Part shown: piece after piece, positions 4,539 to 11,582 of the stretch
Position numbering within the stretch: position 1 is the first letter of the stretch
Layout of the letters: every line of letters begins with the position of its first letter
The notes under the pieces: generated by a model
Told to the model about the DNA's origin: nothing
Databases searched by the model: none
What the model saw: the letters and a program-made list of their open reading frames with translations, nothing else
Translations under genes and position numbers: made by a program
Assembly: GCA_020053475.1 (NCBI GenBank)
Contig: JAGVNC010000073.1
Coordinates: 1 to 37,784 of the forward strand
Direction: 5' to 3'
Origin: Candidatus Omnitrophota bacterium
Lineage (GTDB): Bacteria > Omnitrophota > Gorgyraeia > Zapsychrales > Zapsychraceae
DNA length: 37,784 nucleotides

Positions 4539-5291
4539 TTACCGCATGACGAGGCCGCCGTCGACGTTAATGACCTGGCCAGTCATATAAGTGGCGTCCC
4601 GGCTTAATAAAAAGGCAACGGTATTGGCGACATCGTCCGGCGTGCCTAACCGTTGCAAAGGGATATTCTGTTTCATTTGTTCTTTTTGTTCGTCGGAAAA
4701 TTTAGCTAACATTTCTGTTTCGATAAATCCCGGGGCAATAGCATTGACGCGGATGCCGTAAGAGGCGACTTCTTTGGCCAAGGATTTGGTAAATGCGTTG
4801 ATCCCCCCTTTGGCGGCGGAATAATTCGTTTGTCCGGGTAATCCCATAATGCCACTCACCGAAGAAATATTAATAATATCTCCTTTTTTTTGTTTCATGA
4901 ACGTGACGATGCAGGCTTTGGTAACATTAAATGTCCCCCCTAAATTTGTGTCGATCACTTTCTGCCAATCATCAGACGTCATCATCATCAGGGCCTTATC
5001 ATTGACGATGCCGGCGTTATTGATCAAAATATCGATCCCGCCAAAATCCGACTTCACATCTTCGGTCCAGGCTTTCACTTGACTGAGATCGCGGACATCA
5101 ACTTTACTCGCTTTACAGCGGACATTGTTCTTGGTCACTTCTTGGACGAGCGCGTCGGCCGCTTGTTTTTGTTCATGATAATTAAACGCCACATGGCATC
5201 CCAAGCCGGCCAATTTCAAGACAATGGCCCGCCCGATGCCCCGTGATCCACCGGTAACGATAGCCACTTTGTCTTTGATTAAATCACTCAT
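4539..5291 (-). CDS. fabG: 3-oxoacyl-ACP reductase FabG
   Basis: NADPH-dependent reduction of 3-oxoacyl-ACP to (3R)-hydroxyacyl-ACP in type II fatty-acid synthesis. This is a classical short-chain dehydrogenase of 250 residues, the normal length. The Rossmann motif GGSRGIG is at residues 14-20, NNAG at 91-94, and the catalytic triad is Ser144, Tyr157 (NYSAAKGG) and Lys161. The C-terminus NVDGGLVMR is typical. It is the last gene of the long operon and overlaps the KS-like gene by 8 nt, so the two are translationally coupled. Pairing with a catalytically dead KS raises the possibility that this copy serves a specialised acyl or polyketide-like pathway, not bulk lipid synthesis (inference). Confidence 0.96.
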   Translation of the reverse strand: MSDLIKDKVAIVTGGSRGIGRAIVLKLAGLGCHVAFNYHEQKQAADALVQEVTKNNVRCKASKVDVRDLSQVKAWTEDVKSDFGGIDILINNAGIVNDKALMMMTSDDWQKVIDTNLGGTFNVTKACIVTFMKQKKGDIINISSVSGIMGLPGQTNYSAAKGGINAFTKSLAKEVASYGIRVNAIAPGFIETEMLAKFSDEQKEQMKQNIPLQRLGTPDDVANTVAFLLSRDATYMTGQVINVDGGLVMR

Positions 5292-6534
5292 TGTACCTCC
5301 CTAAAACCATACAGCAATTATTGCCGCTCACCCCAAACGTATTGACCAGAATATGATTAAGCTTGGCGGAGCGCGCTTGATTGGGCACATAATCCAAATC
5401 GCAATCCGGGTCTTTTTCTTGGTAGTTAATCGTCGGAGGGATGAAATTACGCTCGAGAGCGCCTAAACTTGCCGCGGTGGCAAACGCCCCGCCGGCGCTA
5501 AAACTTTCGCCGAGCATGGATTTGACCGCGCTCACCGGAATTTTTTTGCTATGTTCGCCGAATACTTCTTTGATCGCCTGTGTTTCAATTTTATCCGCCG
5601 TCGGCGTTGAATTCGCATTCGCGCAGATATAATCAATGTCCTTCGGCTCCAACTCTGCATCTTTTAACGCGGCCCGCATCGCTTCCTTAAACCCTGTCCC
5701 GCGCGGATTAAATTTATGCAACCGAAACGGATCAAAATAATACCCGAATCCTAACACTTCCGCCATGATATGGGCCCCGCGCCCACGGGCATGTTCCAGC
5801 TCTTCCATGACAACCAAACAAGCCCCTTCGCCAAAAGTAATCCCATTACGTCGTCGGTCAAACGGGCAATTAACGTACGCCGATCCTTCTTTAGCGCCGG
5901 AAAGATAATTGAGCGCGTAAAACCCGTAATAGGTGTAAATACACATCTCCTCCACGCTTCCTGTAAAGATGACTTTCGCGCGATCCATTTGGATAAAATC
6001 GTACGCGTAGCTCATCGCGTCCAGGCTCGCCGTAAATCCTGTCGAAATCGTTGTATTAAACCCCTGAATGTTGTTCCAAATGGAAACCTGGCTGGCGGGA
6101 GAATTAATCACCGTATTGGGGAACAAGGCAGGATTGGTGTAACGCGGCCCTTCGCGTAACGTAATTTCATCGAACTCGGCAATGCTTTTCAAACTCCCGA
6201 ACGTTGTTCCGACGGAAACACCCACGTCGTCGGTATTTTCATCCGTAATCTTAAATCCGCAATCCGCAAGAGCCATTCGCGACGCGCAAACCAACAGTTT
6301 CGTCGCGCGGTCCAATGTCCTTAATCCCTTCGGGCCCAAATAATCCTTGGCCTCAAAATCACGGACTTCGCCGGCCATGTTGATTCGAAATTGGCTGGGA
6401 TCAAATAGCGAGACCGGCCCGAAACCGCAACGGCCTTCCTGTAACGACTGCCAGAATTCATCTTTGGTTTTTCCGATGCAACTGAGCAGTCCCAGCCCTG
6501 TGATGACGACTCGTTTTTCTTTACTCATATTCAA
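5284..6534 (-). CDS. FabF-like ketosynthase homologue lacking Cys-His-His (chain-length-factor-like)
   Basis: Thiolase-fold protein of the beta-ketoacyl-ACP synthase (KAS II/FabF) family, 416 residues, full length. All three catalytic positions are replaced. The nucleophile motif STAC is STGF, with Phe167 where Cys belongs. AHGTSTP is ANANSTP, with Asn306 for the first His. TGH is LGE, with Glu343 for the second His. The conserved Lys338 and much of the scaffold remain (VVITGLG at the start, FGEGA, AVKSM, NTFGVSG near the end). In type II polyketide synthases such dead partners (chain length factor/KS-beta) dimerise with an active KS and set chain length. No active partner lies in the window. 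The reading frame is intact, and the gene overlaps ribE by ATGA and fabG by 8 nt, so it is maintained and expressed. Alternative: a divergent KS with unusual chemistry. Confidence 0.85.
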   Translation of the reverse strand: MNMSKEKRVVITGLGLLSCIGKTKDEFWQSLQEGRCGFGPVSLFDPSQFRINMAGEVRDFEAKDYLGPKGLRTLDRATKLLVCASRMALADCGFKITDENTDDVGVSVGTTFGSLKSIAEFDEITLREGPRYTNPALFPNTVINSPASQVSIWNNIQGFNTTISTGFTASLDAMSYAYDFIQMDRAKVIFTGSVEEMCIYTYYGFYALNYLSGAKEGSAYVNCPFDRRRNGITFGEGACLVVMEELEHARGRGAHIMAEVLGFGYYFDPFRLHKFNPRGTGFKEAMRAALKDAELEPKDIDYICANANSTPTADKIETQAIKEVFGEHSKKIPVSAVKSMLGESFSAGGAFATAASLGALERNFIPPTINYQEKDPDCDLDYVPNQARSAKLNHILVNTFGVSGNNCCMVLGRYNE

Positions 6535-7112
6535 CGGCGATTGATGATATATTTCGCCAAAATATCTGTTTCAATATTAACACGGTCCCCGGATTTTTTA
6601 TGGCCCAATGTGGTCATTTGCTTGGTGAACGGAATTAAAAAAACCGAAAAAGTTCTCTTCCCGACCTCACCGACCGTCAGGCTAATTCCATCTAAACATA
6701 CGGAGCCTTTGGGGACAATATATTTCGCTATTTTTTTGTCCAGCCCGATCACTAGCTGGGTATAATTTTTTCGTTCGATTCTTTGCTGAATGGCCCCGAC
6801 TTGATCCGCATGCCCCGTGACAAAATGCCCGCCCCAACGGTCTCCCACCTTCAACGCGCGCTCCAAATTAACTTGATCTTTAGGCCGAAGGCCTTTTAAC
6901 GTCGTTTTTTCTAACGTCTCTTGCATCATCTCAAACACCAATTTTCCTTTAGTCCGTTTAATGACCGTCAAACACACTCCATCGACGGCGATGCTATCTC
7001 CTAACTTCGTTCCTGTTGACACTTTCCGGGCGCGCACCGCTAATGCAGACAAATTGCGCTGATGAATGATCTGATCAACCGTTCCTATTTCTTCAATGAT
7101 GCCGGTGAACAT
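6531..7112 (-). CDS. ribE: Riboflavin synthase, alpha subunit type
   Basis: Dismutates two 6,7-dimethyl-8-ribityllumazines into riboflavin and a pyrimidine, the last step of the pathway. The 193-residue protein shows the two tandem lumazine-binding barrels. The N-terminus MFTGIIEEIGTV and DSIAVDGVCLTV belong to repeat 1; GHFVTGHADQVG and GSVCLDGISLTV belong to repeat 2. It is slightly shorter than the usual 200-215 residues but complete. The start overlaps the end of ribD by 20 nt and the stop overlaps the KS-like gene by 4 nt. Confidence 0.97.
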   Translation of the reverse strand: MFTGIIEEIGTVDQIIHQRNLSALAVRARKVSTGTKLGDSIAVDGVCLTVIKRTKGKLVFEMMQETLEKTTLKGLRPKDQVNLERALKVGDRWGGHFVTGHADQVGAIQQRIERKNYTQLVIGLDKKIAKYIVPKGSVCLDGISLTVGEVGKRTFSVFLIPFTKQMTTLGHKKSGDRVNIETDILAKYIINRR

Positions 7113-8193
7113 AACCTTCCAGGAAAATATCCTGCCCTATTTTTTTAACAATTAAATGATGAAGCCTAATCGCTTGATTGATTTTCTTAATGCCAAGCCC
7201 ATCGACAGCGCTCAATGCCTTTTGATCGCCAATAATTTTGGGGGCCATGTAAATGTGCATTTGATCCACCAAATTTTCTTTCAACGCACTGCCGATCACC
7301 TGCGCCCCGCCCTCTATCAGGATACTTGTAATCTCCTTTTTAGCAAGCTCTTTCAAAACCCACCTTAAAGGGATGCGGCCTGTCGCTCGAGGATAAATTT
7401 CAACATTGATTCCTCGTTTCCGAAACATTCCTACATTGGCGGACGAAGCGCGTTTTGTCGTAAAAATGTAACAATTTGCAGCTCTTGTTTTCTTAAACAG
7501 CTTAGCTTGAGCGGAGATGCGCAAAGAGGAATCTAAAATAATTTTTTTAAGCGCTTTGCGTTGGCCGTTGAGATTCGGGTTATCCTTAAGGACCGTATTC
7601 GCCCCAACTAAAATCGCATCAAATTGATCTCGCCGGCGACGAGCCAAATCACGCGTTTGGGCTGAGGTGATCCAATAAGAATCCCCGCTGGCCGTTGCGA
7701 TCTTCCCGTCTAATGTGATCGCCGATTTGGCGACGACAAACGGCATCTTATCTTTGATAAATTTTACAAACACCTCATTTAACAATCGCGCTTCTTTTTC
7801 CAATACCCCTGTTTTAACGCGAATCCCGGCCCGCTTTAATTTGGCCAATGATTTTCCGTTCGTCAACGGGTTAGGATCTTTCATCGCCACGACGATTTTG
7901 TTAATGCCGCTTCGTAAAACCCGCTCAACACACGGCGGCGTGTAGCCATCATGATGACAAGGTTCCAGATTAAGATAAAGGGTTGCGCCTCGCGCTTTTG
8001 CTCCGGCCTTATTGAAGGCGATCACCTCAGCATGATCTGTCCCGCGCTGTCGGTGCCATCCTGTGGCGATGACCCGGCCTGCCTTTACCAGGACAGCTCC
8101 AACCATCGGATTAGGAGAGGTCATCCCTCGTCCTTGCCTGGCCAAAGCCAGCGCTTTGCGCATAAATAGAATATCTTGATTGTTGTTAGGCAT
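7093..8193 (-). CDS. ribD: Bifunctional riboflavin deaminase/reductase RibD
   Basis: Catalyses two successive steps: deamination of diaminohydroxyphosphoribosylamino-pyrimidine, then NADPH reduction of the ribosyl side chain. The N-terminal cytidine-deaminase-like domain (about 1-145) carries the zinc ligands and catalytic Glu in DHAEVIAF and EPCHHDGYTPPC. The C-terminal reductase domain has AKSAITLDGKIAT and the late ILIEGGAQVIGS motif. I use the ATG at 8193 (366 residues), which overlaps the PHP gene by 8 nt. An earlier in-frame ATG at 8232 would add 13 residues with no family support. It is preceded by the PHP gene and followed by ribE. Confidence 0.95.
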   Translation of the reverse strand: MPNNNQDILFMRKALALARQGRGMTSPNPMVGAVLVKAGRVIATGWHRQRGTDHAEVIAFNKAGAKARGATLYLNLEPCHHDGYTPPCVERVLRSGINKIVVAMKDPNPLTNGKSLAKLKRAGIRVKTGVLEKEARLLNEVFVKFIKDKMPFVVAKSAITLDGKIATASGDSYWITSAQTRDLARRRRDQFDAILVGANTVLKDNPNLNGQRKALKKIILDSSLRISAQAKLFKKTRAANCYIFTTKRASSANVGMFRKRGINVEIYPRATGRIPLRWVLKELAKKEITSILIEGGAQVIGSALKENLVDQMHIYMAPKIIGDQKALSAVDGLGIKKINQAIRLHHLIVKKIGQDIFLEGYVHRHH

Positions 8194-9016
8194 GGGTCGG
8201 AACAGATTGCTTAAGTTTTTCAACAAGATCATAAGGGATTTTCACGCGGCCGACAAATGTGTGTTTTTTGGCGGCGCCATGGGCATCGGAACCACCCGTC
8301 ACAACCATCTGATGCTTGCTCGCTAAGTTACAATAAAACTCACTCAATTTTGCGGGAGTATTTGGATAAAAAGCTTCCAACCCACCGAGCCCCCATTTAG
8401 CAAATTGCGCGATCAACTCATCGACACCTGTAACCATCGGATGAGCCAACACAGTCACTCCGCCATATTTTTTAATTAATTCGATGGCTTCCTGCGGGGT
8501 TTGTTTGAATTTCGGGACATACGCGGCAGCCCCGTCGGCCAAAAATCGATCGAACGCTTCCTGAAGGCTTGTCACATACCCTTTTTGCTTAAGAACTAAT
8601 GCCAAATGCGGACGCCCGACGGCTTTCGAATGAACCAAGCCGCAGACTTCTTCCAAAGAAATATTTCCGAACCCTAATTGTTTTAATTTATCAATCATTT
8701 GCTCCATGCGCTGGATACGGGCATTTTGCATGATCTCTAATTGGCGGTTCAATTCTTCATTTTGGTAATCAAATAAATAGGCGAGGATATGAATATCTTT
8801 TCCGTTCAACTCCGCCGAAAGTTCAATGGCGGGGATCACTTCAATGCCAAATTCCTTAGCGGCCTCAATGGTGGGGGCAATCCCATCAACGGTGTCATGA
8901 TCGGCGATGGCAATACAACTGAGCCCCTGATCGATGGCTTGCTGAATCACTTCTTGAGGAGAAGAGGTGCTGTCAGAGTAAAAGGTATGGATATGAAGAT
9001 CGGCCCATTTGCTCAT
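8186..9016 (-). CDS. PHP-domain phosphoesterase (RNase AM/TrpH-like)
   Basis: A metal-dependent phosphoesterase of the PHP superfamily, 276 residues. Metal-binding motifs are clear: DLHIHTFYSDS (His8, His10), ADHDT (Asp39, His40, Asp41), AHPMV in the middle and GGSDAHG near residue 246. Close relatives include E. coli RNase AM (YciV), which removes 5' nucleotides from RNA, and nucleoside 3',5'-bisphosphate phosphatases. Which substrate applies cannot be read from sequence. It overlaps nusB by 4 nt and ribD by 8 nt, so it is an integral member of the rib operon. Confidence 0.9.
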   Translation of the reverse strand: MSKWADLHIHTFYSDSTSSPQEVIQQAIDQGLSCIAIADHDTVDGIAPTIEAAKEFGIEVIPAIELSAELNGKDIHILAYLFDYQNEELNRQLEIMQNARIQRMEQMIDKLKQLGFGNISLEEVCGLVHSKAVGRPHLALVLKQKGYVTSLQEAFDRFLADGAAAYVPKFKQTPQEAIELIKKYGGVTVLAHPMVTGVDELIAQFAKWGLGGLEAFYPNTPAKLSEFYCNLASKHQMVVTGGSDAHGAAKKHTFVGRVKIPYDLVEKLKQSVPTHA

Positions 9017-9441
9017 GATTGGGGTTTTGGCGGATTGACTTCCGTTTTATGCAGTTTGTCCAGGATCCCGTTGACAAATTTATTGGAGTCCATGTCGCCA
9101 TACTTTTTGGCAAGCTCAATGGCTTCGTTGATTGACACTTTGGGGGGGACATCGGCGCTAAATAACAATTCATAAACACCGATCCGCAATACGTTGCGGT
9201 CGATGACAGCCATACGCTTTAATTGCCAATTGGTTGCGTAAAACGTGATCTTTTCATCAATGAAGGGCAGATGCTCGGCCACGCCGGAGGTAATCCGAGA
9301 ACAAAATTCTTTGACAGGCTGGTCTTCTTTGGGCGCTTCTTCCCAAAAATTTTGGGCGGCCGCTTTAATCTCCCGGCGGGTAACATCCGCTTGATAAAGG
9401 ATCTTTAACGCACATTCACGGGCTAACGTTCGATTTCGCAT
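9013..9441 (-). CDS. nusB: Transcription antitermination factor NusB
   Basis: All-helical RNA-binding protein that, with ribosomal protein S10 (NusE), binds boxA in rRNA leaders and promotes processive rRNA transcription. The 142-residue length is normal. Typical stretches include ARECALKILYQADVTRRE at the N-terminus, the central DRNVLRIGVYELLF, and PPKVSINEAIELAKKYGDMD leading to KFVNGILDKL at the C-terminus. It lies 8 nt after ribH, the common ribH-nusB pairing in bacteria, and overlaps the PHP gene by ATGA. Confidence 0.96.
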   Translation of the reverse strand: MRNRTLARECALKILYQADVTRREIKAAAQNFWEEAPKEDQPVKEFCSRITSGVAEHLPFIDEKITFYATNWQLKRMAVIDRNVLRIGVYELLFSADVPPKVSINEAIELAKKYGDMDSNKFVNGILDKLHKTEVNPPKPQS

Positions 9442-9449
9442 ATTGGACC

Positions 9450-9917
9450 TTATTGTTTTAACTGAGAAAGAAGATCAATCATTTCTAGCGCGGCCAAGGC
9501 AGCGTCCTGCCCTTTATTTCTGCCCTTGGATTGAGAGCGTTGCTTGGCTTGCCCCATTGTTCCCGTCGCCAACACTTCAAAGATAACAGGTTTGCCGGTT
9601 GTCAGCGCTGCTTGGGAAATGCCCCGGGCTGTTTCCAATGCGATTAAATGAAAATGATACGTATCGCCTTTGATGATCGCGCCCAGACAAATGACAGCAT
9701 CAATATTCTTTCTCTTGGCCAACGTCATGGCCGCTAAAGAAATTTCAAAGGCGCCTGGGACATAAACCAATGTAATATCCTGGGCTCGCACGCCTTTAAT
9801 CTGCAATTCGCCCCGGCAAGCCTCAACCAACCGCCGCGTAATGGCTTCATGAAATTTTGACGCCACGATCGCGATGCGCTTCCCTTGTCCCTTGACCTTT
9901 CCTTCGATTTTTTTCAT
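9450..9917 (-). CDS. ribH: 6,7-dimethyl-8-ribityllumazine synthase RibH
   Basis: Condenses the RibD product (after dephosphorylation) with dihydroxybutanone phosphate to form lumazine, normally as a pentamer or a 60-mer shell. The 155-residue protein has the substrate-binding segments VPGAFEISLAA and GAIIKGDTYHFHLIA (with the catalytic His region) and the GKPVIFEVLATGTMGQAKQRS loop that binds phosphate. NKGQDAALAALEM closes the fold. It lies 13 nt after ribBA and 8 nt before nusB. Confidence 0.97.
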   Translation of the reverse strand: MKKIEGKVKGQGKRIAIVASKFHEAITRRLVEACRGELQIKGVRAQDITLVYVPGAFEISLAAMTLAKRKNIDAVICLGAIIKGDTYHFHLIALETARGISQAALTTGKPVIFEVLATGTMGQAKQRSQSKGRNKGQDAALAALEMIDLLSQLKQ

Positions 9918-9930
9918 GCAGGCGGGAATC

Positions 9931-11130
9931 CTATAAAATATGGCCTAATTTTGTTTTCTTGGCCTTTAGATAATTTTCATTCGTGGAGTTATGAGGAATT
10001 TTTAACGCCACACGCTCAACAACGGAAAGTCCATACCCTTCGAGCCCAACGATTTTGCGAGGATTGTTCGTCAGCAAACGAATTTGCTTGACGCCTAAAT
10101 CGACGAGAATCTGCGCTCCCAATCCGTAATGACGCAAATCCGGCGAAAACCCTAACGCTTCGTTAGCTTCCACGGTGTCTAAGCCTTGATCCTGAAGGTT
10201 ATAAGCTTTCATTTTATTGATTAATCCGATGCCCCGGCCTTCCTGGCGCATATAGACCAAAATCCCGGCGCCATGTTTAGCGATCATTTCTAACGCCGTT
10301 TGCAATTGAGCATTACAATCGCAACGTAAAGAATGAAACACATCACCGGTGAGGCATTCGGACTGCACCCGGACAAGAATAGAAACCGTTGCGTCGATTT
10401 TCCCCATCACCAACGCGATATGTTCCAGCTGGTCAACTTTCGTTTGATAGGCGATCATCTTGAAAAAACCAAACGATGTGGGCAAATTGGTTTCAACGAT
10501 CCGTTGGACCAATTTTTCGTAGCGCCGGCGATATTCGATCAAGCTATTGATGGTACAAATTTTAAGTTTATGTTTTTTCGCGAATGATTGGAGGTCCATC
10601 GTTCTAGCCATGGTCCCGTCTTCGTTCATGATTTCACAGATGACACCGGAGGGATAAAGCCCCCCCAGATTCATTAAATCCACGGAAGCTTCCGTATGCC
10701 CGGCGCGAACAAGAACGCCGCCTTTTTGAGCCCGCAAAGGGAATAAATGCCCCGGCGTCGTGAGATCGGTTGATGTTGATTTAGGGTCAATGAGGACTTT
10801 AACGGTATACGCACGATCCGCGGCAGAAATCCCTGTCGTAATGCCTGTGGCCGCGTCTACGGAAATGGCCCAGCCCGTATCGCATTTTTGGTGACGGCTC
10901 CCCACGTCCACTTTCATCGGGTGAAGCGCTAATTCGTCCAAACGTTCCGCTTCCATCGGCACGCAAATCAATCCCCGGGCTTCTTTCGCCATAAAATTGA
11001 TGATTCCCGGGGTAATATATTGGGCCGCGCAGAGAATATCCCCCTCATTTTCCCGGCCTTCATCATCCATGACAATAATCATCTTCCCTTGCTTTAAATC
11101 CTCAAGGACTTCTTCAATGGTATTAAACAT
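9931..11130 (-). CDS. ribBA: Bifunctional DHBP synthase/GTP cyclohydrolase II
   Basis: Supplies both precursors of riboflavin: 3,4-dihydroxy-2-butanone-4-phosphate from ribulose 5-phosphate, and the pyrimidine from GTP. The first ~200 residues are RibB, with acidic Mg-binding [10 protein letters not shown] at about 22-31 and GHTEASVDL. The second half is RibA, with zinc cysteines in [14 protein letters not shown], then RQEGRGIGL and LLTNNP. The length, 399 residues, matches fused RibBA proteins. It heads the eight-gene operon. A GGAGGAG ribosome site precedes the ATG, and a terminator hairpin sits in its leader at 11156-11192, so expression may be set by attenuation. Confidence 0.97.
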
Positions 11131-11155
11131 CCGTTATCTCCTCCGATGTTTTCTG

Positions 11156-11192
11156 AAAATAAAAAAACCTAAGACAGCACTTATCTTAGGCT
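11156..11192 (-). terminator. Intrinsic terminator inside the rib operon leader (attenuator)
   Basis: On the minus strand AGCCTAAGA pairs with TCTTAGGTT (9 bp including one G-U) around a 9-nt loop and is followed by a run of T interrupted once (11156-11167). It lies between the promoter at 11247-11275 and the ribBA start at 11130, so it would stop transcripts before the operon unless prevented. I see no FMN-riboswitch consensus. Confidence 0.75.
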
Positions 11193-11246
11193 CATAAATG
11201 GCTTATCTTCATTCAAGAGAACAGGTTAATGGCGTAAGCAAAATGT

Positions 11247-11275
11247 ACTATATTCCAAATCCTTTGGATTGTCAA
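11247..11275 (-). promoter_or_regulatory. Promoter of the rib-nusB-fab operon
   Basis: TTGACA (11270-11275), a spacer of exactly 17 bp and TATAGT (11247-11252) on the minus strand. The expected start is near 11240, giving a leader of about 110 nt before ribBA. Confidence 0.8.
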
Positions 11276-11553
11276 GCGAATTGTCCCAGGGAAGGGCGTC
11301 AAAAAGCATATTATTTAACTAATATTAATATTATTTGGGGTTCATCATCAGCAAACAAAGATTGAGGGGCAAAAGCGGCATCATTGAAAGGAATCATGGC
11401 GGATCATCACCCTAAGCATCGGGTGATGGAAGAGGCTGGAATCAATAAAATCGGGAAAGAGTTAAGCATGGGTTGACAATTAAGCCCCTTGATCAGTTGC
11501 TTCGTCCTATCTTCTCGCTTACGGCAGGGCAAATGCATTCGAAAAAATTCGTC
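11276..11553. other. Divergent intergenic region with an 8-bp hairpin
   Basis: Between the divergent rib and cinA promoters I see no gene. CATCACCC (11405-11412) and GGGTGATG (11421-11428) form a perfect hairpin without a T run. An AT-rich TAATATTAATATTA stretch lies at about 11321-11337. Confidence 0.4.
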
Positions 11554-11582
11554 TTGTCAATTCCCCAAATAATTTTTATAAT
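11554..11582 (+). promoter_or_regulatory. cinA promoter, positioned for a leaderless transcript
   Basis: TTGTCA (11554-11559), a 17-bp spacer and a perfect TATAAT (11577-11582). The cinA ATG begins 7 nt after the last base of the -10, where transcription is expected to start. No Shine-Dalgarno sequence can exist on such an mRNA. Confidence 0.8.

What the first reader, a model, noticed from the sequence alone, without database searches (positions are those of the whole stretch)
11131..11275. Terminator inside the ribBA leader: candidate new attenuator or riboswitch
A consensus promoter is followed after about 50 nt by a 9-bp terminator hairpin with a T tract, then the ribosome site and ribBA. 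The ~110-nt leader does not show the FMN-riboswitch core, yet the eight-gene riboflavin operon lies behind it.
Basis: partly seen in the sequence, partly recalled or inferred. Interest (0 to 1): 0.62.

Follow-up and report, generated by a model that had tools for sequence, protein, structure and literature searches.

The report
Riboswitch terminator that outlived its sensor
In this uncultured Omnitrophota bacterium the vitamin B2 genes start with a transcription stop signal that looks like the leftover output half of an FMN riboswitch whose sensing half is gone, so it is probably a fixed brake and not a new riboswitch.

Summary
In detail: a near-consensus promoter (11247-11275, minus strand), an intrinsic terminator (hairpin 11165-11193, T tract 11156-11167), a ribosome site and ribBA. 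The hairpin is well above chance and its stem occurs once in the genome. Comparison with 69 genomes of the order (Candidatus Omnitrophota) explains it. Sister families carry the same ribBA promoter, then a divergent FMN riboswitch that Rfam's cut-off misses, then a UCCCGAGAG...CUUGGGA-UUUUUU terminator. The motif TCCCRAG...CTYGGGATTTT occurs 7 times in 51 genomes; 6 of the 7 are just upstream of ribBA, three with an aptamer and three in the window's family without one. No aptamer was found in the window's family. About 13 of its 29 readable leaders keep a terminator, 11-108 nt after the inferred transcription start, usually too close for an aptamer. The sisters' antiterminator strand (P1 5' strand GCUUUCGGGA) is absent, as are a leader peptide and a second promoter. 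Best reading: the expression platform of a lost FMN riboswitch, now a fixed attenuator. Retention and loss in about equal numbers argue against an essential switch. A compact conditional switch is not excluded but has no positive support. Nothing was measured.

The parts
11247..11275 (-). ribBA promoter TTGACA-17-TATAGT; spacer ATCCAAAGGATTTGGAA
   Evidence: same promoter (TTGACAAG-17-TATAwT) before ribBA in nearly all genomes of the order; occurs once in the genome with up to 3 mismatches
11131..11240 (-). ribBA 5' leader, about 110 nt from the inferred transcription start to ATG
   Evidence: inferred from the promoter; folds
11165..11193 (-). terminator hairpin, 12 pairs; core stem CCTAAGA/TCTTAGG at 11190-11168
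   Evidence: related stems CCCRAGA/TCTYGGG in relatives
11156..11167 (-). T tract TTTTTTTATTTT
   Evidence: sequence
11138..11144 (-). ribosome site GGAGGAG
   Evidence: sequence
9931..11130 (-). ribBA (DHBP synthase / GTP cyclohydrolase II)
4539..9917 (-). rest of the co-directional run: ribH, nusB, PHP phosphoesterase, ribD, ribE (riboflavin synthase), FabF-like, SDR
11554..11582 (+). promoter of the divergent pncC/cinA-type gene; in relatives its -35 overlaps the ribBA -35, here it is about 280 bp away

Best explanation
The leader is a decapitated FMN riboswitch: an ancestral ribBA leader held promoter, FMN aptamer and intrinsic terminator, with the 5' strand of P1 acting as antiterminator. 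The window's family lost the aptamer and the antiterminator strand; the promoter and, in about half the lineages, the terminator remain. With no partner left to open it, the terminator probably acts as a ligand-independent attenuator that ends a fixed share of transcripts at about 11156-11162 and so sets ribBA operon output. Supported by sequence comparison: the terminator, the missing aptamer and antiterminator strand, and a ribBA-specific terminator sequence shared with riboswitch-bearing sisters. Inferred: loss rather than gain, the transcription start, partial read-through, and lack of regulation.
For: Terminators in 12 of 29 family leaders against about 1.1 expected from shuffles (one of these, G008, is weak); G021, whose leader is longer, and G028 add two on inspection. 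TCCCRAG-N(4-26)-CTYGGGATTTT occurs 7 times in 51 whole genomes; 6 are immediately upstream of ribBA, in riboswitch-bearing sisters (G032, G034, G043) and aptamer-less family members (G004, G009, G021). The sisters have the same promoter followed by the aptamer (RF00050 at 28-59 bits). In five of six sisters the best partner of the terminator's left arm is GCUUUCGGGA at the aptamer's 5' end; for the sixth (G034) the scanned stretch began too late, but the same strand (ACTTTCGGGAT) is visible in its sequence. In the family no such partner is found (p 0.3-0.9, except G009 p 0.003 and G021 p 0.08). nhmmer at maximum sensitivity finds no aptamer remnant in the family. RF00050 is present in 153 of 293 genomes across dozens of families of the class, which favours loss. 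RibBA tree: all six aptamer-bearing genomes fall in one supported clade (98/95), the window's family in another (100/99). No downstream promoter and no uORF with a ribosome site in the window.
Against: The window's own stem (CCTAAGA/TCTTAGG) departs from the consensus and its nearest sampled relatives G012 and G015 show no terminator, so this copy could have re-formed. Midpoint-rooted trees cannot tell loss from gain; class-level riboswitches were not checked to be upstream of ribBA. No expression data exist, so strength and constitutive behaviour are inferred. If the hairpin only lowered output it is unclear why about half the lineages keep it.
Confidence: 0.62

Rival explanations
1. A conditional attenuator without a classical aptamer: the terminator stem itself (as in terminator-embedded HMP-PP riboswitches) or a protein bound to the leader decides read-through.
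For: The terminator motif is ribBA-specific and persists in about 13 lineages whose pre-terminator sequences no longer align; stems keep pairing through two-sided changes.
Against: Loop sequence and length are not conserved, whereas a conserved loop was one of the clues to the HMP-PP switch (PMC6478431). Pre-terminator stretches are 11-108 nt and unalike. About half the family, including close relatives such as G027 within genus g4, does without it.
Confidence: 0.13
2. The terminator arose independently in the window's lineage and is not descended from the FMN-riboswitch platform.
For: Stem CCTAAGA/TCTTAGG differs from CCCRAGA/TCTYGGG; sampled sister genomes G012 and G015 lack it; three f7 leaders carry unrelated hairpins (G048, G050, G055), so gains can happen.
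Against: Six of seven stem pairs are identical to the G021/G025 stems and the remaining one differs by C-G to U-A; position relative to ATG (34 nt) is like that of the family (29-54 nt); leader terminators are rare genome-wide.
Confidence: 0.15
3. Functionless relic: the hairpin persists by inertia and has little effect on ribBA output.
For: Scattered presence and absence on the RibBA tree, 8 changes of the label.
Against: Stems keep pairing through two-sided changes while flanking leader sequence has fully diverged, although only leaders with hairpins were examined, so this is biased; strong U tracts are kept.
Confidence: 0.1
4. Leader-peptide attenuation using the six-codon ATGAAGATAAGCCATTTATGA that ends at the foot of the hairpin.
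For: The frame exists and stops just before the left arm.
Against: No ribosome site; several family leaders leave only 11-24 nt before the hairpin.
Confidence: 0.03

Closest known systems
FMN riboswitch (RFN element, RF00050) with transcription-terminating expression platform
   Same: Riboflavin gene behind it, same promoter as the riboswitch-bearing sisters, matching terminator in the same place
   Different: No aptamer and no P1-strand antiterminator in the window or anywhere detected in its family
HMP-PP (thiS) riboswitch with terminator-embedded aptamer (PMC6478431)
   Same: A compact terminator exclusive to a vitamin-synthesis gene
   Different: No conserved loop and no alternative P1 fold; common descent from an FMN platform explains the gene association
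Lumichrome/lumiflavin-sensing variant FMN riboswitches (described in PMC11477304)
   Same: The sister-family aptamers are also altered FMN aptamers
   Different: The sisters sit on ribBA; their altered position is G84; the window itself has no aptamer
Plain promoter-proximal intrinsic terminator or fixed attenuator
   Same: Anatomy of the window's leader as it stands
   Different: Here its origin from a riboswitch platform can be traced by comparison

Membership tests
FMN riboswitch (RF00050) | Conserved multi-helix FMN aptamer core | tested here: not met
   No match in the window, in its genome or in any family genome searched; no remnant by nhmmer --max; the 47 nt before the hairpin cannot hold it
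FMN riboswitch (RF00050) | Terminator alternating with an antiterminator that uses the P1 strand | tested here: not met
   Terminator present; no partner for its left arm (window p 0.37) while riboswitch-bearing sisters pair it with the P1 5' strand
FMN riboswitch (RF00050) | Located upstream of riboflavin synthesis or transport genes | tested here: met
Intrinsic terminator / attenuator | Stable hairpin directly followed by a T tract, between promoter and gene | tested here: met
Intrinsic terminator / attenuator | RNA polymerase stops there in the cell | not testable with these tools
   no transcript data
Terminator-embedded aptamer (HMP-PP type) | Conserved loop and an alternative P1 fold | tested here: not met
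   Loops differ in sequence and length; no significant alternative pairing of the left arm in the window
Leader-peptide attenuator | Translated short ORF covering the terminator's competitor | tested here: not met
   No uORF with a ribosome site in the window; not enough room in several relatives
T-box or other Rfam leader | Match to a curated family | tested here: not met

The most novel reading that the evidence does not exclude
After losing the FMN aptamer the family rebuilt regulation in the bare terminator, so that a ligand or protein acts on the hairpin itself: a minimal switch evolved from a decapitated riboswitch.
Probability: 0.08. Interest if true: 0.72.

Novelty: new variant of a known kind. 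Interest (0 to 1): 0.4.

Why it matters
It would be a traceable natural case in which a riboswitch loses its sensor while its output terminator survives across many lineages, with still-equipped sister families for comparison. It makes testable whether a riboswitch can degrade into a fixed attenuator. It also warns that a terminator in a biosynthetic leader is not in itself a sign of an undiscovered riboswitch, and it exposes divergent FMN riboswitches that Rfam's cut-off misses.

Tried and rejected
Rfam with permissive settings gave only sub-threshold sRNA-like hits driven by the terminator. An operator role for TAATATTAATATTA was considered because it is enriched in ribBA leaders, but it also sits in lysS leaders and inside genes, so it is not riboflavin-specific. 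BLAST of the leader in relatives found only the promoter region conserved. SD sequestration in the full-leader fold was not better than shuffles (z -1.5). Literature searches for FMN riboswitch plus Omnitrophota, and for riboswitch loss, found nothing. A covariance model of the window's leader was not built because no alignable homologues of the pre-terminator stretch exist.

Full report
What is there. On the minus strand a near-consensus promoter (TTGACA-17-TATAGT, 11275-11247) is followed after about 53 nt by a hairpin (11193-11165) and a TTTTTTTATTTT tract, then GGAGGAG and ribBA at 11130. The hairpin folds at -13.4 kcal/mol, z -4.9, and its stem occurs once in the 2.03-Mb genome. In 328 kb of the same genome few intergenic terminators of any kind were found and only four leader-type candidates, one of them this one. 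No promoter-like sequence lies between the hairpin and ribBA, and no ORF with a ribosome site lies in the leader, so the operon must be transcribed through the hairpin if these motifs are read rightly.

Whose genome. Relatives with names are Candidatus Omnitrophota. Upstream regions of ribBA were collected for 69 genomes of the order: 29 in the window's family (f1) and 40 in six others.

The promoter is old. TTGACAAG-17-TATAwT precedes ribBA in nearly every genome. It stands at 7-269 nt from ATG in f1, f3 and f7, and further upstream, before a riboswitch, in f2, f5 and part of f4.

The riboswitch in the sisters. Six genomes of f2, f4 and f5 have an FMN-riboswitch relative upstream of ribBA with 28-59 bits, under Rfam's 66.2-bit cut-off. 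All keep A48, A85 and A99 but carry CCAAUAG for the usual CCGACGG, so the phosphate-contacting G84 (pocket residues as listed in PMC7573352) is A, with C31 changed to U; numbering transferred by eye from F. nucleatum. Most also have an extra hairpin in J1/2. After the aptamer comes a terminator beginning UCCCGAGAG in four of them (UCCCGAGCC in G039, UCCCGGAAG in G046). Its best partner is GCUUUCGGGA, the 5' strand of P1, in five of six; in G034 the scan started too late but the same strand is visible. This gives a standard design: without ligand the P1 5' strand opens the terminator; with ligand P1 closes and the terminator forms. That mechanism is inferred from pairing, not measured.

What the window's family has. 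RF00050 is found in none of its genomes, although this fast search also missed G043, later found at 30 bits, so absence was tested again with a profile built from the six divergent aptamers run at maximum sensitivity on the 600-nt upstreams: no remnant in f1. Twelve of 29 f1 leaders have a terminator against about 1.1 expected (one of the twelve, G008, is weak and probably not real), and G021 and G028 add two more on inspection. The hairpin begins 11-108 nt after the inferred start, leaving no room for an aptamer in most and showing no common sequence. Left-arm partners are no better than shuffles in nearly all.

Why I call it homologous. The motif TCCCRAG...CTYGGGATTTT was found 7 times in 51 genomes; six of these are at ribBA, split between riboswitch-bearing and aptamer-less genomes. 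The window's own stem does not match that strict pattern; it differs from the G021/G025 stem by one pair, C-G to U-A. Stem pairs 3-7 vary with pairing mostly kept; these stems were chosen because they form hairpins, so the pair changes are supporting and not decisive. The RibBA tree puts aptamer carriers in one supported clade and f1 in another, with terminator presence scattered inside f1. FMN riboswitches are widespread in the class (153 of 293 genomes), so loss in f1 is the simpler reading, though their gene context was not checked and the root is not inferred.

Mechanism. Most likely a fixed attenuator: a share of transcripts stops at 11156-11162, the rest express ribBA and the genes behind it. 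A new riboswitch is not supported by any positive evidence; a compact conditional device in the stem or through a protein is not excluded. The weak point is the window's own copy: its stem departs from the family consensus and its nearest sampled relatives lack one, so re-formation cannot be dismissed.

Verdict. Observation confirmed; interpretation partly supported. A new variant of a known kind, of moderate interest as an evolutionary remnant with good natural controls.

Noticed in passing
L057:1424-1616 (-), L060:1326-1501 (-), L023:1085-1291 (+), L059:1350-1538 (-), L028:2207-2451 (-), L015 from about 930 (+): Divergent FMN riboswitches upstream of ribBA in sister families, all below Rfam's gathering score; all six have A at position 84 (normally a phosphate-contacting G) with C31 changed to U, and most have an extra hairpin in J1/2. 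Candidate altered flavin specificity.
   Followed up: partly
window 11247-11275 and 11554-11582; upstreams of ribBA in relatives: In 53 of 65 genomes with a TTGACA box (a count that includes the window's own separated promoter) the ribBA promoter and the divergent pncC/cinA-type promoter share one palindromic -35 (CTTGACAAG), so one polymerase should exclude the other; in the window the two are about 280 bp apart.
   Followed up: partly
window 11320-11333 and 101-114: Perfect palindrome TAATATTAATATTA: 3 copies in this 2-Mb genome, 2 of them in this window (near ribBA and next to tRNA-Pro); it recurs in ribBA and lysS leaders and inside some genes of relatives, while the reversed control is nearly absent.
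   Followed up: partly
window 11253-11269: The ribBA promoter spacer holds an inverted repeat TCCAAA-GGA-TTTGGA; in relatives the part next to the -10 (ATTTAGAATATA) is conserved. Possible operator.
   Followed up: no
L022, about 30-270 nt upstream of ribBA (G021): Tandem repeats of GGTTAACCCC...TTTGCTAGGGGTATTTAGATGAC between the terminator and ribBA.
   Followed up: no
L054 upstream of ribBA (G050): A long REP-like inverted repeat (GTAGGGACAGCCTCCC...GGGAGTTGTCCCTAC) with a T tract forms a different ribBA leader terminator in family f7.
   Followed up: no
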